Position numbers and translations under genes: made by a program | Source: Pseudobacter sp. | GTDB lineage: Bacteria > Bacteroidota > Bacteroidia > Chitinophagales > Chitinophagaceae | Direction of reading: 5' to 3' | NCBI GenBank assembly: GCA_017849455.1 | Contig: JAFIGX010000006.1 | Span: forward strand, 62,001 to 126,000 | Length of the DNA: 64,000 nt | Notes under the pieces: model-generated | Told to the model about the DNA's origin: nothing | Seen by the model: the letters and a program-made list of their open reading frames with translations, nothing else | The model's database searches: none | Part shown: piece by piece, positions 45,121-59,266 of the stretch | How the letters are laid out: each line of letters starts with the position of its first letter | Position numbering within the stretch: the stretch's first letter is position 1

Positions 45121-45906
45121 ATGAATCTATCGCTGGAAGGAAGGAATGCCGTTGTGTGTGGAAGCACACAGGGTATCGGGCTGGCCATCGCCGAAGAACT
45201 GGCATTGCTGGGCGCCAACTGCACACTCCTATCGAGAAATGAGGAGGCGCTGAAAACCGCTATGCACAAGCTCGATATCGCTCTTCGCCAACAACACAAT
45301 TATCTTGTGGCCGATTTCAGCAATCCCCATGAAGTGGCTGCCGTGATCAGGAAACATGTAGAGCATACACCCGTACATATCCTTATCAACAATACCGGCG
45401 GCCCTCCTCCGGGGCCCATCATCCAGGCCACGGAAGGCTCTTTCCTGAACACTTTCAACCAGCACCTGGTCTGTAGCCATCTTCTCACGCAGGCAGTAGT
45501 GCCTTCTATGAAAGCCGCTCAGTTCGGAAGGATCATCAATATCATTTCCACTTCGGTGAAGATCCCGCTGAAGAACCTGGGCGTGTCGAATACCATCCGT
45601 GGGGCCATGGCTTCCTGGGCCAAAACGATGAGCCTGGAGTTGGGACAATTCAATATCACCGTCAATAATGTGTTGCCGGGATTTACGACCACTGCGCGAC
45701 TGGAAGGACTTGTACAAAATATCTCTACGAATAAGAAATTACCGGCTGACCAGGTCGAGGAGGAAATGACGGCCGAAGTGCCCATGAAACGTTTTGGCCA
45801 GGCTTCTGAAATAGCTGCCGTAGCTGCATTCCTGGCATCACCGGCAGCCTCTTATGTAAATGGTGTAAGTATTCCTGTTGATGGAGGAAGAACAGGATCA
45901 ATCTAA
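45121..45906 (+). CDS. short-chain dehydrogenase/reductase family protein lacking the Tyr-Lys pair
   Basis: A 261-residue SDR-fold protein. The nucleotide site is VVCGSTQGIGLAIAEEL, then NNTGGPPPG and IISTSVKIP (Ser). Where a classical SDR has YxxxK, this protein reads SNTIR, so the catalytic Tyr and Lys are both replaced. The rest (VNNVLPGFTTTARL and PVDGG) is normal. A subfamily with this substitution is known from many genomes without assigned activity. It starts the SDR-AMSDH unit inside the kynurenine cluster. An ATG at 45112 adds three residues. Confidence 0.85.
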   Translation: MNLSLEGRNAVVCGSTQGIGLAIAEELALLGANCTLLSRNEEALKTAMHKLDIALRQQHNYLVADFSNPHEVAAVIRKHVEHTPVHILINNTGGPPPGPIIQATEGSFLNTFNQHLVCSHLLTQAVVPSMKAAQFGRIINIISTSVKIPLKNLGVSNTIRGAMASWAKTMSLELGQFNITVNNVLPGFTTTARLEGLVQNISTNKKLPADQVEEEMTAEVPMKRFGQASEIAAVAAFLASPAASYVNGVSIPVDGGRTGSI

Positions 45907-45919
45907 CAATGCTCAGATC

Positions 45920-47377
45920 ATGAATCTCGAAGTTCCTTATCACCTCGAAAATTTTATCGGCGGTGAACTGCTCGCACCCCGCGGAGGGAAATATATCGAC
46001 AATTATAATCCTGCTACCGGTGAGGTATCCGGGAAAATTCCCGAGAGCGACGCACAGGATGTGGAAGCCGCTGTACAAGCCGCCCAGCAAGCCTTTCCTG
46101 CCTGGTCTGTGACGCCACTGGAAAAAAGGTTCACGGTCCTGAACCGGATCGCTACTTTGATCGATGAGAACCTGGAGGCGTTGGTATTGGCCGAAACGAA
46201 CGATAATGGCAAACCGCTTTGGTTGAGCAGGCGGGTGGACATACCCAGGGCATCCGCCAATTTCCGTTTCTTCGCAACAGGCATCATGCATTTCGCTACA
46301 GAGAGCCATCAGATGGAAGACAAGGCCATCAATTATACCCTTCGTCAACCCATTGGAGTAGTGGGTTGCATTTCTCCCTGGAACCTTCCGCTTTATTTGT
46401 TCACCTGGAAAATTGCGCCTGCATTGGCGGCAGGCAATTGTGTGATAGCCAAACCATCGGAGATTACGCCGGTAACAGCCTACCTGCTTGCCCATATCGT
46501 GAGGGAAGCCGGCCTTCCGGACGGTGTGTTGAATATCCTGCATGGCACAGGGCCCAGCGCTGGTGAAGCCATTATTCAGCATCCGGCCGTCAAAGCGATC
46601 TCGTTCACCGGTAGTACGAGGGCCGGGGCGCGCATTGCTTCGGTGGCTGCGCCCGTCTTCAAAAAATTATCACTGGAACTGGGCGGCAAGAACCCCAATA
46701 TCATTTTTGCCGATTGTAACTGGGAGAAGATGATGCGCACTTCCATTCAATCTTCCTTCTCGAACCAGGGGCAGATCTGTCTTTGCGGTAGTCGCATCCT
46801 GGTGGAAGCATCCATTTATGAACGATTCAAGAAAGAATTTGTAGAACGGACCCGCCAGTTGACGGTGGGAGATCCGCTGGATGAACATTCCCGCCAGGGC
46901 GCTATCGTCAGCAAAATGCATTTCGATAAAGTGATGCGATGCATCGCCACTGCCAAACAGGAGGGAGGCATCATCCTCTGCGGAGGTAATGTAGTGCAAC
47001 TCCCCGGCCGTTGCGCCAACGGGTGGTTCATCGAGCCGACCGTGATCGAAGGTCCGGGCCCTGATAGTATGACCAACCAGGAAGAGATATTCGGGCCTGT
47101 CGTAACGCTGCAATCATTCCAGACAGAAGAAGAAGCCCTGCAACTGGCGAATGCCACACAATACGGGCTGGCTGCCTCCATCTGGACGCAGGATATCAGT
47201 CGCGCCCACCGCATTGGAGCTGCCGTTCAATCCGGCATCATCTGGGTCAACTGCTGGTTGCTCCGTGATCTTCGTACACCCTTTGGCGGTATGAAGAACA
47301 GTGGCGTTGGCAGGGAAGGAGGTTGGGAGGCATTGAGGTTCTTTACGGAGGCGAAGAATATTTGTGTAGAGTTATAA
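45920..47377 (+). CDS. nbaE: 2-aminomuconate-6-semialdehyde dehydrogenase (aldehyde dehydrogenase family)
   Basis: A 485-residue aldehyde dehydrogenase. The Rossmann region is ISFTGSTRAGARIA, the general base lies in LELGGKNPNIIF and the catalytic Cys in FSNQGQICLCGSRILVE, whose ICLCGSR form is typical of the 2-aminomuconate semialdehyde / hydroxymuconic subfamily. It converts the ACMSD product to 2-aminomuconate. The ATG at 45920 is chosen; the in-frame start at 45878 would overlap the SDR gene by 29 bases. Position in the cluster is the main support for the substrate. Confidence 0.9.
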   Translation: MNLEVPYHLENFIGGELLAPRGGKYIDNYNPATGEVSGKIPESDAQDVEAAVQAAQQAFPAWSVTPLEKRFTVLNRIATLIDENLEALVLAETNDNGKPLWLSRRVDIPRASANFRFFATGIMHFATESHQMEDKAINYTLRQPIGVVGCISPWNLPLYLFTWKIAPALAAGNCVIAKPSEITPVTAYLLAHIVREAGLPDGVLNILHGTGPSAGEAIIQHPAVKAISFTGSTRAGARIASVAAPVFKKLSLELGGKNPNIIFADCNWEKMMRTSIQSSFSNQGQICLCGSRILVEASIYERFKKEFVERTRQLTVGDPLDEHSRQGAIVSKMHFDKVMRCIATAKQEGGIILCGGNVVQLPGRCANGWFIEPTVIEGPGPDSMTNQEEIFGPVVTLQSFQTEEEALQLANATQYGLAASIWTQDISRAHRIGAAVQSGIIWVNCWLLRDLRTPFGGMKNSGVGREGGWEALRFFTEAKNICVEL

Positions 47378-47380
47378 TTT

Positions 47381-47627
47381 TTTTTACCACGAAGGCACAA
47401 AGGCACGAAGGGAAAGGGGATAAGGATTGGGAAGCTGAGATGACTAAATTGATTAGTGCTTGTCGATGGTAATAAAAAATAGTGTTGTTTGCTTGAGAAA
47501 ATGGTAATCGATACAGGTTCGGACAAATAAAGGCACTAAGGGACGCCGTATGAAGCAGACTATATTCTTCTTTACTTTTCCTTCGTGTCTTCGTGCCTTC
47601 GTGGCCCACAACCCTTCGTGGTAAAAA
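47381..47627. repeat. hairpin family D, copy D1 (unit GCACGAAGG)
   Basis: The left arm 47381-47413 (TTACCACGAAGGCACAAAGG...) and right arm 47580-47627 (CCTTCGTG... CTTCGTGGTAA) are inverted and built of 9-base GCACGAAGG/GCACAAAGG units. Between them is a ~130-base body homologous to the two bodies of D2. It directly follows the AMSDH stop and precedes the GxxExxY gene. Confidence 0.85.
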
Positions 47628-47661
47628 AGAAAAAGGCTGGAAACTTCTTAAAATTTGTTTT

Positions 47662-48045
47662 ATGAAACAAACTGAGAAAGAAGAATTTCTGGCAAAAGAA
47701 ATAGTTGATTGCGCCTTTAAGGTCCACAAACAACTGGGACCAGGATTATTAGAAAAAGTGTATGAACGCTGTTTTTGCCATGAGCTTTCCAAGAAAGGCA
47801 TCCCTTTTCGCAAACAGGTAAATGTACCTATTGTGTATGATGGGTTGATAATAGATGAAGGCCTGCGATTAGATGTTTTGGTAGATGAATTAGTGATCTG
47901 TGAACTTAAAGCAAGACATGAACTGAGCCCGGTATGGTCATCACAATTGATCAGTTATCTGCGACTGACCAAATTAAGGCTTGGGTTTCTGATCAATTTC
48001 AATGTTGACCTCATTAAATATGGTATTCAGAGATTCAGGGTTTGA
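47662..48045 (+). CDS. GxxExxY protein, PD-(D/E)XK nuclease-like
   Basis: A 127-residue GxxExxY protein (the family once called PDDEXK_3). It has LGPGLLEKVYE (the namesake motif, about 28-38) and a nuclease-like core LRLDVLVDELVICELKA (Asp then Glu-x-Lys, about 75-91). The C-terminus continues SQLISYLRLTKLRLGFLINFN. A nuclease activity for the family is predicted, not shown to my knowledge. The ATG at 47662 is used; the upstream 23 residues are hairpin D1 sequence. It sits between hairpins D1 and D2 and interrupts the kynurenine genes. Its AT-rich codon use contrasts with its neighbours. Confidence 0.85.
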   Translation: MKQTEKEEFLAKEIVDCAFKVHKQLGPGLLEKVYERCFCHELSKKGIPFRKQVNVPIVYDGLIIDEGLRLDVLVDELVICELKARHELSPVWSSQLISYLRLTKLRLGFLINFNVDLIKYGIQRFRV

Positions 48046-48050
48046 TATTT

Positions 48051-48618
48051 TTTTTACCACGAAGGCACAAAGGCACGAAGGGAAAGGGGATAAGGATTGG
48101 GAAGCAGAGATGATTGAAATGATTGGTGCTTAGCGATGATAATAAAAAATAGTGTTGTTGCTTGAGAGAATGGCAATCGATACAGGTTCGGACAGATAAA
48201 GGCACGAAGGGAAAGGGGATAAGGATTGGGAAGCGGAGATGATTGAAATGATTGGTGCTTAGCGATGATAATGAAAAATAGTGTTATTTGCTTGAGAGAA
48301 TGGCAATCGATACAGGTTCGGACAGATAAAGGCATAAAGGAAAGGATTGTAAGAGAAAGATTTTAGAAAAGTAAGATATTGGAAGAGTAAGATCTTGGAA
48401 AAGTAAGGTCTTGGAAGAAAGTATTAGGGCTGTTAATAGTTGAACGAATGACCGCAATCAGGGTCCAATTCATCGAACCTTTGTGCCTTGATGATATGAA
48501 TGACATGCTGCTAAAAACATAATTGAAACCAATAAATAAACGATAATTGCCACACTTGATCAGGGCTCAGGAATAAGTACCTTATTTTCTTTGTGCCTTC
48601 GTGTCTTCGTGGCCCACC
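48051..48618. repeat. hairpin family D, copy D2 with tandem internal bodies
   Basis: The left arm 48051-48083 is identical in plan to D1, and the right arm 48591-48618 closes the element. Inside are two direct copies of the ~129-base body (from about 48072 and 48201) and a fragment of a third from about 48331. A 16-base tandem repeat (GAAAAGTAAGATATTG type, three units, 48366-48413) follows, then about 175 bases with no recognised content. Confidence 0.8.
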
Positions 48619-48633
48619 ATTCAAAAAAGAATC

Positions 48634-49053
48634 ATGCCTAACCAACCAATTACCACCTCCAAAGCAGCCACTCCATTAGGCGCATATCCTCATGCGAGAA
48701 GGGTAGGGAACCTGCTTTTCCTTTCAGGTATCGGGCCCAGGAATCCGAAAGATAATTCCATCCCGGGACTGGAGCTGGATGCCGACGGCAATATCGTGAA
48801 ATATGATTTCGAAGCGGAATGCCATGCCGTGTTCGCCAACGTGAAAGCCGTACTGGAAGCCAGCGGCAGCAGTTGGGACAAAATGGTCGACGTTACCGTC
48901 TTTCTCACCAACATGAAAAAAGATTTTCCGGCATACAACAAGATCTACAGTGAATATTTCAGCCATGTGCAGGCCTGTCGCACCACAGTAGAAGTAAAAA
49001 GCCTGCCTACACCCATTTCGATCGAACTAAAAGTAATCGCTACCATAGACTGA
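48634..49053 (+). CDS. nbaF: RidA-family deaminase, probable 2-aminomuconate deaminase
   Basis: A 139-residue RidA/YjgF/UK114-fold protein. It shows AATPLGAYPHARRVGNLLFLSGIGPRNP, WDKMVDVTVFLTNMKKDFPAYN and the Arg of QACRTTVEVKSLP, as in RidA enzymes that hydrolyse enamines and imines. Within a cluster holding HAAO, ACMSD and AMSDH, the expected next step is deamination of 2-aminomuconate, for which RidA-fold deaminases are known. The specific substrate is therefore inferred from context. Confidence 0.8.
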   Translation: MPNQPITTSKAATPLGAYPHARRVGNLLFLSGIGPRNPKDNSIPGLELDADGNIVKYDFEAECHAVFANVKAVLEASGSSWDKMVDVTVFLTNMKKDFPAYNKIYSEYFSHVQACRTTVEVKSLPTPISIELKVIATID

Positions 49054-49100
49054 ACCCGAATCTGTACTTAATAAAACAGAATGATGCGCCCTCAATCCTA

Positions 49101-49126
49101 ACGACCAACAACCAACGACAAACATT
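49101..49126. repeat. short repeat family E, copy E2
   Basis: ACGACCAACAACCAACGACAAACATT, sharing its last 15 bases with copy E1 at 39745. It lies in the nbaF-kynU gap. Confidence 0.45.
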
Positions 49127-49146
49127 CTTCAACCTCTTTGAAAATA

Positions 49147-50430
49147 ATGAACTACCAAAACACCCTTGACTTCGCCCGGCAACAGGATAATATCGATCCC
49201 TTGAAACATTTCCGCCAACGTTTCTTTATCCCCCTGGTGGATGGAAAAGAATCGATCTATTTTAATGGCAACTCCCTCGGCCTTCAACCCAAAACAACTG
49301 CACAATATATCCAACAGGAACTGGACGATTGGGCCAGATACGGCGGGGAAGGGCATTTCCACGCAAAGAACCCCTGGGTCTCTTACCATGAGATCTTTCC
49401 TCAACAGCTTTCAAAAATTGTAGGGGCATTGCCTGAAGAAGTGGTGGTGATGAACCAGCTCACCGTGAACCTCCACCTGCTGATGGCCACATTCTATCAA
49501 CCAACTAAAGATCGATATAAGATCCTCTGTGAAGCCAAAGCATTCCCGTCCGATCAATATGCATTGGAATCACAGGTAAGGTTTCATGGATACCGGCCGG
49601 AAGATGCGATCATAGAGGTCGCGCCGCGGGAAGGAGAAAATATCATTCGGACGGAAGACATCCTGCAACAAATAGAACAACACAAAGATTCACTGGCATT
49701 GGTGCTTTTCGGTGGGGTGAATTATTACAGTGGCCAGGTATTCGATATCGCGGGTATCACCGCCGCCGCCCATGCAGCCGGTATCTACGCAGGTTTCGAC
49801 CTGGCCCATGCTACGGGAAATATCGCGCTGGAGCTTCACAACTGGGAGGTGGATTTTGCAAGCTGGTGCAGCTATAAATACCTCAATTCAGGCCCGGGTG
49901 GTGTATCCGGTGTCTTCATTCACGAACGCCATATCACCAACCGCTCCTTACCACGATTTGCAGGATGGTGGGGGCACAGGAAAGAATTAAGGTTCCTCAT
50001 GGATAAAGGATTCGACCCCATCCCCACGGCAGAAGGGTGGCAATTGAGCAATGCGCCTATATTGCTGATGGCTGCGCATAAAGCCTCCCTCGATATATTC
50101 GATGAGGCCGGTATGCAGGACCTGGTAGCCAAATCAAAAAAAATGTCGGGGTACCTTCATTTTGTGTTGAACGAGATCAATCGACACTTATCCCGTAAGG
50201 TTGTTGAAGTGATCACGCCCGGCAAAGAAGCGGAACGCGGTTGCCAGGTATCATTGCTGATGCTGGAAAAAGGGAAGGAAGTATTCAATGCATTGATGAA
50301 GGCCGGTGTGATTGCCGACTGGCGCGAGCCCAATGTGATCCGCATCGCGCCTGTTCCATTGTATAACAGGTTCGAGGATGTATGGCAATTCGGAAAGATC
50401 ATTGAAGAAGTGCTGGGCAATAAAAAATAA
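49147..50430 (+). CDS. kynU: kynureninase
   Basis: A 427-residue PLP-dependent kynureninase that cleaves (3-hydroxy)kynurenine to (3-hydroxy)anthranilate and alanine. It has IYFNGNSLGLQPKTT near 38-52, NQLTVNLHLLMATFYQP, the FDLAHATGN Asp and the PLP lysine in WCSYKYLNSGPGG near 243-255. HERHITNRSLPRFAGWWGH follows. The ATG at 49147 is chosen; the frame opens at a TTG nine bases earlier. It is followed directly by kmo (3 bases between). Confidence 0.96.
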   Translation: MNYQNTLDFARQQDNIDPLKHFRQRFFIPLVDGKESIYFNGNSLGLQPKTTAQYIQQELDDWARYGGEGHFHAKNPWVSYHEIFPQQLSKIVGALPEEVVVMNQLTVNLHLLMATFYQPTKDRYKILCEAKAFPSDQYALESQVRFHGYRPEDAIIEVAPREGENIIRTEDILQQIEQHKDSLALVLFGGVNYYSGQVFDIAGITAAAHAAGIYAGFDLAHATGNIALELHNWEVDFASWCSYKYLNSGPGGVSGVFIHERHITNRSLPRFAGWWGHRKELRFLMDKGFDPIPTAEGWQLSNAPILLMAAHKASLDIFDEAGMQDLVAKSKKMSGYLHFVLNEINRHLSRKVVEVITPGKEAERGCQVSLLMLEKGKEVFNALMKAGVIADWREPNVIRIAPVPLYNRFEDVWQFGKIIEEVLGNKK

Positions 50431-50433
50431 ACC

Positions 50434-51786
50434 ATGCAACAAAAGCAAATCACCATTATCGGCGCTGGCCTTGTAGGGTCGTTGTTGTCGATCTATCTTG
50501 CCAAACGCGGACATAAAGTGAAACTCTATGAACGCCGTCCCGATATGCGTTCCACCACCATCGCAGCAGGCCGTTCCATCAACCTGGCGCTGAGCGACAG
50601 GGGATTGCTGGCATTGGAAAAGGTTGGACTGGCCGATGCCATCCGCGATATCTCTATTCCCATGCACGGCCGCTACCTGCATCAACCCGATGGCGCCACT
50701 GCATTTCAGCCCTATGGCAGGGAAGGCCAATATATCAATTCCGTATCGAGAGGTACGCTGAACAAAAAGCTGATGGATCTCGCCGAAGAACATGGCATCG
50801 AAATTTATTTCAATCATAAATGCTCGCAGATCGACTGGCCCACCAATACTGTTTACTTCGAAACGGAAGCCGGTGAGCAGTCGGTACGATCAGACATTAT
50901 CTTCGGGGCCGATGGCGCATTCTCCGCTGCACGCCTTCAACACCAGTTGCATGGTGACCGGTTCGACTACCACCAATTCTACATCGACTGCGGGTATAAA
51001 GAGCTCACGATCCCGCCAACAGCGTCGGGCGATTTCGCCATGCACGTGAACGCCCTCCATATCTGGCCCCGGAAAGAATTCATGCTGATCGCATTGCCCA
51101 ATCTCGACAAGTCATTTACCTGTACCTTGTTCTTCCCGTTCGAAGGGGACCTCTCTTTCTCTAAACTGGATACGGAAGAGAAAGTGCGGTCATTTTTCGA
51201 AAGAACATTTCCCGACGCTGTGCCGCTGATGCCCGATTATATACACGAGTTCTTTCACAATCCGACCTCATCGCTCGTCACCGTAAAATGTTTTCCCTGG
51301 GTCAGAAGCGACCGCTTCGCATTGATCGGTGATGCGGCCCATGCCATCGTGCCTTTCTTCGGGCAGGGAATGAATTGCGGGTTCGAGGATTGCCGTATCC
51401 TGGATGAACTGGCCGGCATCCATGGGGACGACTGGCAGGCCATCCTCCGGGAATTCCAGCATACGCGCAAGCCCGATGCCGATGCCATTGCCGATCTAGC
51501 CGTGAATAATTTCACGGAAATGCGCGATCGCGTAGCAGATCCTTCCTTCCTGCTGCAAAAGAAAATAGAAGCCCGCCTGCACGAAAAATATCCCGATCGG
51601 TGGGTCCCCGCCTATTCAATGGTCACCTTCAGCCCGCAGGTCCGCTATTCCACTGCCTTGCAGCATGGACAGCGCCAGGAAAAGATCATGCAGGCCGTGA
51701 TGCAGCGAGAACATATCACTGAAATGTGGAATGATGACAGGCTGCATGAAGAGATTATTCAACAACTTGTATCTTCGCGCCCATGA
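50434..51786 (+). CDS. kmo: kynurenine 3-monooxygenase
   Basis: A 450-residue FAD monooxygenase that hydroxylates kynurenine to 3-hydroxykynurenine using NADPH and O2. The FAD motif is ITIIGAGLVGSLLSIYLAKRG (6-26), with YERRPDMR next and RSINLALSDRGLLAL. The second FAD motif is LIGDAAHAIVPFFGQGMNCGFEDC near 298-321. The C-terminal membrane-anchoring region of mammalian KMO is absent, as in bacterial enzymes. Its stop overlaps the pyrF start by four bases (ATGA). Confidence 0.96.
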   Translation: MQQKQITIIGAGLVGSLLSIYLAKRGHKVKLYERRPDMRSTTIAAGRSINLALSDRGLLALEKVGLADAIRDISIPMHGRYLHQPDGATAFQPYGREGQYINSVSRGTLNKKLMDLAEEHGIEIYFNHKCSQIDWPTNTVYFETEAGEQSVRSDIIFGADGAFSAARLQHQLHGDRFDYHQFYIDCGYKELTIPPTASGDFAMHVNALHIWPRKEFMLIALPNLDKSFTCTLFFPFEGDLSFSKLDTEEKVRSFFERTFPDAVPLMPDYIHEFFHNPTSSLVTVKCFPWVRSDRFALIGDAAHAIVPFFGQGMNCGFEDCRILDELAGIHGDDWQAILREFQHTRKPDADAIADLAVNNFTEMRDRVADPSFLLQKKIEARLHEKYPDRWVPAYSMVTFSPQVRYSTALQHGQRQEKIMQAVMQREHITEMWNDDRLHEEIIQQLVSSRP

Positions 51787-57540: not shown

Positions 57541-58725
57541 ATGGCCGCTCGAACCGATCTTTTTGTCAGTCCGGACTATTTTCTACTGGATGAACTATTG
57601 ACCGAGGAACAGAAGCTCGTGCGGGAATCTGTTCGCAATTACGTTAAAAGAGAGATATCCCCCATCATCGAAGAATATGCCCAGAAAGCGGAATTCCCGG
57701 AACAGATCGTACAACAACTGGGCGACCTGGGTTGTTTTGGCCCCACCATCCCGGTTGAATATGGCGGCGGCGGCCTCGATTATATCAGTTATGGCCTCAT
57801 GATGCAGGAACTGGAAAGAGGGGATAGCGGGGTCAGGTCCACTGCTTCTGTGCAGGGCTCGCTGGTCATGTTCCCCATTTATGAATATGGCAGTGAAGAC
57901 CAGCGCCGTAAATTCCTTCCCAAACTGGCCAGCGGCGAATGGCTGGGCTGCTTCGGGCTCACGGAGCCGGACCATGGTTCCGATCCGGCCGGGATGCTCA
58001 CCAATTTCAAGGATACCGGCGACCATGTAGTGCTCAACGGATCGAAAATGTGGATCAGCAATGCCCCTTACGCACAGGTAGCCGTGGTATGGGCCAGAGA
58101 TGAGCAGGGAGAGGTCCGCGGTCTCATCGTGGAGCGGGGGATGAAAGGGTTTACCGCACCGATCACCCATGGTAAATGGAGCCTCCGTGCCTCTGCCACC
58201 GGAGAACTGGTGTTCGACAATGTAAAAGTGCCTAAAGAAAATATACTGCCCCGCGCCAAAGGACTGAAAGCTCCTTTGAGCTGCCTTACCAAAGCGCGTT
58301 ACGGAATTGCCTGGGGAACAGTAGGGGCAGCGATGGACTGTTATGATACGGCGCTTCGCTATTCCAAAGAACGTGTCCAGTTCGACAAGCCCATCGGCTC
58401 CTTCCAGTTGCAACAGAAAAAGCTGGCGGAAATGGTGACCGAGATCACCAAAGCACAATTGCTCAACTGGCGCCTGGGCGTATTGATGAATGAACATAAA
58501 GCCACCCCGGCACAGGTTTCCATGGCCAAGCGCAATGGCTGCGAAATTGCGGCCACTATTGCCCGTGAGGCCCGCCAGGTGCTGGGAGGTATGGGCATCA
58601 CCGGCGAATATCCCGTCATGCGCCATATCATGAACCTCGAAAGCGTGATCACTTACGAAGGCACCCACGATATTCATCTCCTCATCACGGGCATGGACAT
58701 TACAGGTATTAATGCGTTTAAATAA
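57541..58725 (+). CDS. gcdH: glutaryl-CoA dehydrogenase (acyl-CoA dehydrogenase family)
   Basis: A 394-residue acyl-CoA dehydrogenase of the glutaryl-CoA type, forming crotonyl-CoA and CO2. RSTASVQGSLVMFPIYEYGS near 99-118, LGCFGLTEPDHGSDPAGM near 134-151 and the catalytic Glu in VITYEGTHDIHLLITG (about 375) are hallmarks; the Arg of the RS-x-x-S motif binds the glutaryl carboxylate. Mammalian tryptophan and lysine breakdown meets here, and this enzyme could take the product of the kynurenine cluster at 43-52 kb. That link is inference. Element C3 starts at its stop codon. Confidence 0.9.
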   Translation: MAARTDLFVSPDYFLLDELLTEEQKLVRESVRNYVKREISPIIEEYAQKAEFPEQIVQQLGDLGCFGPTIPVEYGGGGLDYISYGLMMQELERGDSGVRSTASVQGSLVMFPIYEYGSEDQRRKFLPKLASGEWLGCFGLTEPDHGSDPAGMLTNFKDTGDHVVLNGSKMWISNAPYAQVAVVWARDEQGEVRGLIVERGMKGFTAPITHGKWSLRASATGELVFDNVKVPKENILPRAKGLKAPLSCLTKARYGIAWGTVGAAMDCYDTALRYSKERVQFDKPIGSFQLQQKKLAEMVTEITKAQLLNWRLGVLMNEHKATPAQVSMAKRNGCEIAATIAREARQVLGGMGITGEYPVMRHIMNLESVITYEGTHDIHLLITGMDITGINAFK

Positions 58726-59262
58726 TGAGGTACGAAGCATGAGGTCTGAGATAAGAAGGAGCCTGAACTAATAGCTAAATCTGTTTTATAGAGAATACGG
58801 AGATATTTCTTGTATAGGTCATTCTATAACTACAAATTCTCTCAAATGATAAGAACAGTTTATGATCTTGATGTGTTTAGATTGTCGTACCAATCTGCAA
58901 TGGATGTTTTCAATTGCGTAAAGACCTTTCCGGGTGAAGAGAAATATTCCTTGACCAGCCAACTGGTAAGAGCTTCAAGATCTGTTGCTGCAAACATTGC
59001 CGAAGGATGGGGTAGGAGAAGCTATGAAAATGAATTCAAAAAACATTTGATCTACTCGATCGGGTCATTGGAGGAAACCAAAGCCTGGTTATTATTCGCT
59101 AAGGATCGTAACTACCTGGCTGAAGAAGATTTCAGGGCTTTGAGTCTTCGTTATGAAGAAATAGGAGCAAAGCTTTACAAGCTATATTCTAATTGGAAAA
59201 AAGTTTAATTAATTGTAAACCCTCTGACTTCTGACATCAGACATCAGACTTCAGACTTCATG
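58726..59262. repeat. hairpin family C, copy C3, enclosing a four-helix-bundle gene
   Basis: The left arm 58726-58750 (TGAGGTACGAAGCATGAGGTCTGAG) is nearly the same as the arm of copy C2. The right arm 59221-59262 (CCTCTGACTTCTGACATCAG... CTTCATG) is the degenerate inverse. Where copies C1 and C2 have loops of 30-40 bases, C3 encloses about 470 bases that encode the S23-like protein. It lies between glutaryl-CoA dehydrogenase and shikimate kinase. Confidence 0.75.
58846..59208 (+). CDS. four-helix-bundle protein (S23 / 23S rRNA intervening-sequence protein family)
   Basis: A 120-residue protein of the S23 (23S rRNA IVP) four-helix-bundle family, related to the Avd accessory protein of diversity-generating retroelements. 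It shows YDLDVFRLSYQSAMDVF (helix 1), SLTSQLVRASRSVAANIAEGWGRRS (the family signature, about 38-62), KHLIYSIGSLEETKAWL and a final Tyr-rich helix. The ATG at 58846 is preferred over 58810. It lies alone inside hairpin C3. In rRNA intervening sequences the same kind of gene sits in a stem-loop, so the setting is suggestive. Its molecular function is unknown. Confidence 0.88.
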   Translation: MIRTVYDLDVFRLSYQSAMDVFNCVKTFPGEEKYSLTSQLVRASRSVAANIAEGWGRRSYENEFKKHLIYSIGSLEETKAWLLFAKDRNYLAEEDFRALSLRYEEIGAKLYKLYSNWKKV

Positions 59263-59266
59263 TATT

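What the first reader, a model, noticed from the sequence alone, without database searches (positions are those of the whole stretch)
47381..48618. GxxExxY nuclease-like gene bracketed by two copies of hairpin family D
The gene lies between D1 and D2, which share arms and a ~130-base body. The unit interrupts a kynurenine operon between AMSDH and the deaminase. The protein has a D...ExK motif like PD-(D/E)XK nucleases. A nuclease-fold protein riding with a dispersed hairpin is what one would expect of a self-spreading element. Together with C3 it suggests that different hairpin families have different small cargo proteins.
Basis: partly seen in the sequence, partly recalled or inferred. Interest (0 to 1): 0.72.

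Follow-up and report, generated by a model that had tools for sequence, protein, structure and literature searches.

The report
Nuclease gene inside spreading DNA hairpins
A small gene with a predicted nuclease fold sits inside one copy of a hairpin repeat that is scattered through this bacterium's genome, the same pairing of gene and hairpin arms recurs across the phylum Bacteroidota, and the protein likely helps such hairpins to spread.

Summary
A GxxExxY gene (TIGR04256/PF13366, D..ExK intact) lies between inverted arms of iterated CACGAAG heptamers and splits AMSDH from RidA, which lie about 10 bp apart in a congener. The genome's second GxxExxY gene sits in another dispersed hairpin family (69 arm hits); of 19 pairs examined only its own exceeds 230 bp. 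Of 210 GxxExxY loci, 128 have two or more arm heptamers on both sides in inverted sense, against 2 of 414 control windows. Arm motif follows protein clade (GTCTGRA on both sides: 8 loci, all GFQE-type), and at one Flavobacterium junction two clades carry two arm types while other species are empty, arms-only or hold a truncated gene. Arms vary between elements yet tend to match within each. Copies 92-93% alike sit at unrelated places. Four-helix-bundle (IVP) genes sit in similar arms of 7-nt period, one at the same AMSDH-RidA junction. I read these as hairpin elements whose resident nuclease-fold protein likely recognises the arms and drives slow spread. Catalysis and mobility are inferred. 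Vertical retention under strong purifying selection, and genomes with hairpins but no gene, remain unexplained.

The parts
45878..47377 (+). AMSDH-type aldehyde dehydrogenase (upstream operon gene; true start may lie inside this ORF)
   Evidence: PF00171; match ends 10 bp before the RidA match in congener G005
47380..47628 (.). left closed hairpin D1: sense arm 47387-47411, antisense arm 47580-47604, outer perfect 16-nt pair 47380-47395/47613-47628
   Evidence: fold of 47379-47630 z -5.3
47662..48045 (+). GxxExxY protein, 127 aa, PD-(D/E)XK fold predicted
   Evidence: AF2 pLDDT 96.8, pTM 0.89
48050..48081 (+). second sense arm, start of D2
48069..48340 (+). two further tandem copies of the 143-nt D1 repeat (48069-48211 and 48198-48340)
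48588..48611 (-). closing antisense arm before RidA
   Evidence: C19:110588-110611, 3 mismatches
48601..49053 (+). RidA-type deaminase ORF (downstream operon gene; start by homology near 48634)
   Evidence: PF01042
58721..58758 (+). left arm of a parallel element with an IVP gene (7-nt-period units); overlaps the end of the upstream ORF (57541-58725)
   Evidence: weak inverted score 25; sequence; ORF
58846..59208 (+). 23S_rRNA_IVP four-helix-bundle gene in that parallel element
   Evidence: PF05635 E 6.7e-32
59228..59266 (-). right arm of the parallel element, abutting the next ORF (59267)

Best explanation
The unit is an inverted-arm hairpin element that carries a GxxExxY gene within a dispersed family of hairpins sharing its arms, and its predicted PD-(D/E)XK protein likely recognises the iterated heptamers of the arms and drives the slow spread of the family. 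Shown: gene and arms go together in this genome and across Bacteroidota; arm motif follows protein clade; empty, filled, truncated-gene and arms-only states exist at one site; arms vary between elements but tend to match within an element; near-identical copies sit at unrelated places. Inferred: the protein binds or cuts the arms, probably as a folded single strand or a cruciform, and nicking there starts copying of the hairpin to a new site; one arm is templated from the other, which keeps each element's arms matched; gene-less copies are moved in trans. The element survives mostly in sense orientation just after a stop codon inside operons, where it likely takes its expression from the host transcript.
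For: (1) Own genome: 2 GxxExxY genes, each inside one member of a separate dispersed family: family D arms 86 hits, backward control 0; GTCTGAAC arms 69 hits, control 0; of 19 GTCTGAAC pairs fetched, 18 are 102-230 bp and only the gene-bearing one is 521 bp. (2) 128 of 210 loci have >=2 heptamers on both sides against 2 of 414 pseudo-gene windows in the same loci; inverted alignment >=30 in 107 of 210 against 3 of 414; swapped flanks 27 of 1048 against 112 of 211. (3) Clade coupling in the 220 gathered loci: GLLE/GLFE/GMLE proteins 123 class A, 10 B, 34 none; GFQE 7 D, 1 B, 14 none (A against not A among classed loci, Fisher 1.4e-8); GFLE 5 B, 2 A, 1 C, 9 none (2e-5); GTCTGRA stands on both sides in 8 loci, all GFQE. 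Tree: 46 label changes against 83.5 shuffled, 0 of 200 as low. (4) Flavobacterium junction, 30 loci: 10 matched by one GxxExxY clade, 7 with another clade and other arms, 7 empty or <=27 bp, 1 truncated gene with arms, 1 arms only, 4 other. (5) Covariation: same non-consensus base in both arms in 58 cells (column-shuffled mean 20.0, max 32) and 44 (mean 15.4, max 26). (6) Copies 92-93% identical in body with unrelated flanks. (7) Phylum: 56 of 59 genomes with the arm pattern have GxxExxY against 45 of 139 without it; 5 of 5 congeners lack 8-nt arms, GxxExxY and IVP. (8) D/E/K kept in 222 of 227.
Against: No excision, insertion or cleavage is shown. Purifying selection is strong (dN/dS about 0.02-0.06 among close orthologs, with dS near saturation) and Flavobacterium keeps the locus vertically, which suggests a host or maintenance role. 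G020 has 30 arm hits and no GxxExxY, G007 has 6 and G029 has 1; G132, G181 and G226 also have pattern hits without the gene. 62 of 227 loci got no arm class. The arm classes were defined after looking at the arms, class D was given a lower bar than the others, and the seven GHSE/GHNE rows are orthologs at one junction. Class D labels alone were not clustered on the tree (7 changes for 7 rows). Direct repeats also score high in 55 of 211 loci. Many arm cells are unmatched too: 59 and 82. The window protein's nearest relative is the one at the same junction in G046 (74%), so vertical descent with loss in G005 is possible. Phylum hits include the arms of the GxxExxY loci themselves, and genomes are not independent. 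No target-site duplication was found.
Confidence: 0.6

Rival explanations
1. The hairpins are mobile units moved by another enzyme (for example a Y1/HUH transposase as in REPIN/RAYT systems), and GxxExxY and IVP genes are passengers caught between arms.
For: The hairpin pairs examined in this genome have no room for a gene except the gene-bearing ones; hairpins occur without GxxExxY in G020, G007, G029; two unrelated proteins, GxxExxY and IVP, occupy similar arms, even at one junction.
Against: A passenger need not match its arms, yet arm class follows protein clade and differs with the clade at one Flavobacterium junction. The catalytic residues are kept in 222 of 227.
Confidence: 0.2
2. The elements act at RNA level like 23S rRNA intervening sequences: the stem folds in the host operon's transcript, is trimmed out by RNase III, and the protein is an RNA-acting or maintenance factor.
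For: 137 of 144 loci in co-directional operons are in sense orientation, median 12 nt from stop codon to first heptamer; D1 folds with z -5.3 as RNA; the Coxiella IVS has a 28-bp terminal stem, an S23p ORF and tandem GACAGAT heptamers (PMC4990558, passages).
Against: Sense bias can come from selection alone. The predicted fold is nearest to Cas4 and DNA exonucleases. No transcript data.
Confidence: 0.25
3. The hairpins serve the host as operon insulators or terminators, and the proteins are domesticated factors; mobility is ancient and spent.
For: Low dN/dS and vertical retention.
Against: Copies 92-93% identical in body at unrelated places; empty sites in related species; five congeners without any.
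Confidence: 0.12

Closest known systems
REPIN/RAYT systems (PMC3116915 abstract and outline; PMC2817692 seen in the listing only)
   Same: Inverted doublets that form hairpins, dispersed, with one gene-bearing copy and many gene-less copies, repeat class tied to a particular gene.
   Different: The resident protein is PD-(D/E)XK (PF13366), not a Y1 tyrosine transposase; arms are iterated heptamers; gene and arms sit inside operons, mostly in sense orientation.
23S rRNA intervening sequences with S23p/IVP (PMC4990558, passages)
   Same: A small ORF inside a long terminal stem; heptamer repeats before the ORF; no known function of the protein; IVP elements of this study have the same 7-nt period and one shares a junction with GxxExxY elements.
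   Different: Located in a protein operon, not rRNA; protein of another fold; 8-10 nt period; dispersed gene-less copies.
MITE with parent insertion sequence (recalled, no paper read)
   Same: Gene-less copies share ends with a gene-bearing copy; truncated-gene intermediate (L366).
   Different: No target-site duplication in 19 elements; interiors of GTCTGAAC elements mostly unlike each other (7 of 171 pairs at 0.7 or more); no DDE transposase between the arms.
Cas4 and lambda-exonuclease-like PD-(D/E)XK nucleases
   Different: No Foldseek hit below E 0.001; 127 aa; no match by sequence profile in the PDB at E up to 1.

Membership tests
GxxExxY family (TIGR04256 / PF13366) | Score over the curated cut-off | tested here: met
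   139.7 bits against 35; 136 against 22
PD-(D/E)XK superfamily | Fold and D..ExK residues | tested here: met
   PF13366 match; AF2 pLDDT 96.8; Foldseek top hits Cas4 and exonucleases, none below E 0.001; D/E/K in 222 of 227
PD-(D/E)XK superfamily | Nuclease activity | not testable with these tools
   needs purified protein
REPIN/RAYT | Dispersed inverted doublets forming hairpins | tested here: met
   86 and 69 arm hits, backward controls 0; 33 and 19 inverted pairs read
REPIN/RAYT | Element encodes a Y1 (HUH) tyrosine transposase | tested here: not met
   The ORF between the arms is PF13366
REPIN/RAYT | A Y1 transposase elsewhere in the genome acts in trans | not tested
23S rRNA IVS | Lies in 23S rRNA | tested here: not met
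   Between AMSDH and RidA; no Rfam match at E up to 1 in 45800-50500
23S rRNA IVS | Encodes S23p/IVP | tested here: not met
   PF13366 instead; met by the second element at 58846-59208
23S rRNA IVS | Excised by RNase III | not testable with these tools
   needs RNA work
MITE / insertion sequence | Fixed-length target-site duplication | tested here: not met
   0 of 19 for lengths 4-9; 2 of 19 at length 3 (expected 0.37) and 2 of 19 at length 2 (1.39) (GTCTGAAC family only, not family D)

The most novel reading that the evidence does not exclude
A phylum-wide, so far unnamed class of nuclease-encoding hairpin elements: PD-(D/E)XK GxxExxY proteins and their iterated-heptamer arms co-evolve as enzyme and substrate, each element's second arm is copied from the first, gene-less copies are moved in trans, and 23S rRNA intervening sequences are the IVP branch of the same class.
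Probability: 0.4. Interest if true: 0.92.

Novelty: new variant of a known kind. Interest (0 to 1): 0.82.

Why it matters
GxxExxY genes occur in 101 of 198 Bacteroidota genomes sampled, and IVP genes in 27 of 39 nearer ones; I found no paper that explains GxxExxY. Tying each to an arm grammar turns two gene families of unclear role and a stock of intergenic hairpins into one testable enzyme-substrate problem. It would also give 23S rRNA intervening sequences a wider family, and show a way for a small nuclease gene to live inside metabolic operons.

Tried and rejected
Phage origin: no match to phage records by blastn at E 1e-5; PHROGs gave nothing for the window protein and E 0.013 for the second one. 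Defence system: no PADLOC match for the window protein or L351's; Cas4b E 0.017 for the second gene, too weak. Known RNA: no Rfam match at E up to 1 in 45800-50500; in 20 IVP loci the one match over a gathering score is a Flavo-1 RNA in L177, and no rRNA. Solved structure by sequence: none. Recent whole-element transfers between fetched loci: none among the top 60 of 2373 DNA matches that I looked at; there, high identity beyond the gene was in syntenic loci. Generic inverted-repeat alignment underrates the signal because unit spacing varies, so a heptamer count was used. That motif, and the four arm classes, were chosen after looking at the arms; the 414 control windows were scored with the same motif. 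In one search class D needed only one hit per side (a bonus in the script), classes A-C three hits in all. Papers: searches in the open-access PMC library only (one search listed 15 of 593) showed no account of GxxExxY with flanking repeats; the one GxxExxY passage I read concerns a gene beside a reverse transcriptase (PMC8934634); the other paper and the one were seen in the listing only; PMC3733652 in passages. Subscription papers and the NCBIfam comment text were not available.

Full report
What is there. The ORF at 47662-48045(+) is a GxxExxY protein (TIGR04256, PF13366). It lies between an AMSDH-type dehydrogenase and a RidA-type deaminase in an operon with kynureninase and 3-HAO genes nearby (the name AMSDH is by context). 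To its left is a closed hairpin, 47380-47628. To its right are a sense arm (48050-48081), two tandem copies of a 143-nt repeat shared with the left hairpin, and a closing antisense arm at 48588-48611. The left hairpin folds with z -5.3. The arms are CACGAAG-type heptamers at 8-nt spacing.

Empty and filled sites. In congener G005 the AMSDH and RidA matches lie 10 bp apart. Nineteen AMSDH loci were read, the own one included; 12 had RidA alongside. In G046, of another genus, the same junction holds a GxxExxY gene in arms GCCACTAAGACACGAAGGCACAAAG. In G063 it holds a 23S_rRNA_IVP gene in 7-nt-period arms, read in frame into RidA. Five loci, G005's among them, have gaps of at most 59 bp (L121, L133, L134, L136, L138); L132 has 86 bp, L125 and L135 have 166 and 177 bp, and L128 has 348 bp without an inverted repeat. 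The G046 protein is the nearest relative of the window's (74%; next L063, 70%), so one insertion followed by loss in G005 fits as well as two insertions.

Own genome. There are two GxxExxY genes. The window's has family D arms (86 hits at up to 3 mismatches, backward control 0). The other (L002) has GTCTGAACTGGGATT arms (69 hits at up to 3 mismatches, control 0). The 19 places where listed GTCTGAAC hits form an inverted pair were fetched: 18 elements are 102-230 bp and only the gene-bearing one is 521 bp; the remaining hits stand unpaired at this threshold. Family D gave 33 pairs, arms 36 to 360 bp apart, and 15 single arms in 43 loci. The closest family D pair is 93% identical in body and the closest GTCTGAAC pair 92%, inverted, with flank identity 0.46-0.49; 51 of 528 and 7 of 171 pairs reach 0.7. 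An IVP gene at C9:135322 sits in a third family, GTTGANAR at 8-nt spacing, with 662 overlapping pattern hits (control 16). Five congeners have no 8-nt arms, no GxxExxY and no IVP.

Arms match within, differ between. In the GTCTGAAC family (19 pairs) both arms share the same non-consensus base in 58 cells (column-shuffled mean 20.0, max 32), with 59 cells broken; in family D (32 pairs) it is 44 (mean 15.4, max 26), with 82 broken. The total of mismatches within pairs was reached by 0 of 10000 shuffles in each family. Either the folded hairpin matters, or one arm is copied from the other; this does not tell which. No target-site duplication was seen in the 19 GTCTGAAC elements.

Across the phylum. 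I gathered 222 GxxExxY loci, 220 distinct. They are mostly Bacteroidota; some records are labelled Planctomycetota, Pyrinomonadaceae, Methylobacter and Rhizobium. An unsupervised 7-mer count gave CACAAAG 97 against 31 antisense, CACAGAG 95 against 17, CGCAAAG 94 against 29, CGCAGAG 73 against 17; two or more heptamers on both sides in sense 128, in antisense 18, of 211 loci. Against windows elsewhere in the same loci: 128 of 210 and 2 of 414; inverted alignment >=30 in 107 of 210 and 3 of 414. Swapped flanks of other loci reach 30 in 27 of 1048, against 112 of 211 own flanks, so complementarity is specific to the locus. Direct alignment reaches 30 in 55 of 211, which I put down to iterated or duplicated arms.

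Arm type follows protein clade. In the 220 gathered loci: A (CRCNRAG) 127, B (CRCNGAT) 18, C (CRCNAAT) 2, D (GTCTGRA) 7, none 62, edge 4. GLLE, GLFE and GMLE proteins: 123 A, 10 B, 34 none. GFQE: 7 D, 1 B, 14 none. GFLE: 5 B, 2 A, 1 C, 9 none. A against not A among classed loci: GL-type against GFQE Fisher 1.4e-8, against GFLE 2e-5. GTCTGRA stands on both sides in 8 loci, all of them GFQE. Seven Flavobacterium rows added (6 C, 1 B) are orthologs at one junction. On a FastTree of 218 rows, with those seven, all labels need 46 changes (shuffled mean 83.5, 0 of 200 as low); class D alone was no better than shuffled (7 changes for 7 rows). The tree is poorly resolved, and related rows make clustering easy.

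One junction, many states. Downstream of a Flavobacterium M24 metallopeptidase gene (PF00557), 30 loci were read, the best-scoring of 80 matching genomes. Ten hold a gene matched by the GPGLLE-type protein of L292. Seven hold a GKGH-type GxxExxY with CACGAAT-type arms. Seven are empty or have up to 27 bp, two of them with TAA and ATG abutting (L377, L378). By eye, L366 has arms and a truncated gene, L376 arms only, L356 and L361 another hairpin; L369 has 82 bp, and L353 gave no upstream match. dN/dS among the orthologs is 0.02-0.06 in 10 of 10 pairs of five A-type genes; in 15 pairs of six C-type genes it is 0.04-0.06 in the close ones, up to 0.24 in distant ones and undefined in two. dS is near saturation, but the protein is clearly kept. 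L367 has lost the catalytic D.

Where it sits. Of 181 loci with neighbours on both sides, 137 are ++, 20 +-, 17 -+ and 7 --; control neighbour pairs are 164 same, 62 different. The median distance from stop codon to first heptamer is 12 nt, n=104 class A loci. Selection could produce this.

Co-occurrence. Of 198 phylum genomes, 59 have the exact arm pattern and 56 of these have GxxExxY at E 0.001, against 45 of the other 139; Fisher 1e-17. The hits include arms of the GxxExxY loci themselves and the genomes are related, so the p-value is not to be taken at face value. Among 39 nearer genomes, 14 have 8-nt arms, 11 of them with GxxExxY, against 10 of the other 25; G020 (30 hits), G007 (6) and G029 (1) have arms and no GxxExxY.

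IVP elements. Of 31 IVP loci, 14 score 34 or more for inverted arms, against 0 of 11 dehydrogenase loci reaching 31; the window's own IVP locus scores only 25. Arms of 21 IVP loci match at lag 7 in 0.60 of positions (0.24-0.37 at other lags). GxxExxY peaks are lower: class A 0.31-0.35 at lags 8-10, B 0.41 at 9, C 0.44 at 10, D no clear peak. The Coxiella IVS has tandem GACAGAT heptamers before S23p and a 28-bp stem (PMC4990558, passages), which fits the IVP class.

Mechanism. The coupling of clade and arms is the main reason to think that the protein acts on the arms. The dispersed gene-less copies and the truncated intermediate are the main reason to think of spread in trans. Cleavage, the intermediate and the copying step are inference. 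The strong purifying selection at long-held sites argues that the protein is also kept for something at the site, or is purged when inactive; I cannot explain this yet.

Noticed in passing
window 58721-59266: A four-helix-bundle IVP gene between 7-nt-period inverted arms, inserted between an acyl-CoA dehydrogenase-like ORF and a shikimate-kinase-like ORF (both names by sight); the left arm overlaps the end of one ORF and the right arm abuts the start of the next.
   Followed up: partly
L129:3049-3957: In G063 the IVP ORF and RidA read as one 302-aa frame through the right arm (IVP-RidA fusion).
   Followed up: partly
G000 whole genome: The GTTGANAR family has 662 overlapping pattern hits, far more than the GxxExxY families, with one IVP gene at C9:135322 inside a member; its spacing is 8 nt, unlike most IVP arms.
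   Followed up: partly
L380 and L382: Two GTCTGAAC elements 92% alike in body, inverted to each other, at unrelated places; most other pairs of the family have unlike interiors.
   Followed up: partly
G106:C1:1593381-1594196 and G166:C4:68683-69764: Two GxxExxY genes in tandem, a few hundred bases apart.
   Followed up: no
L299: A GxxExxY gene preceded by what looks like a complete closed hairpin and followed by an antisense arm, the same layout as in the window.
   Followed up: no
L356 and L361: At the Flavobacterium junction an A-type arm start is followed by a different hairpin.
   Followed up: no
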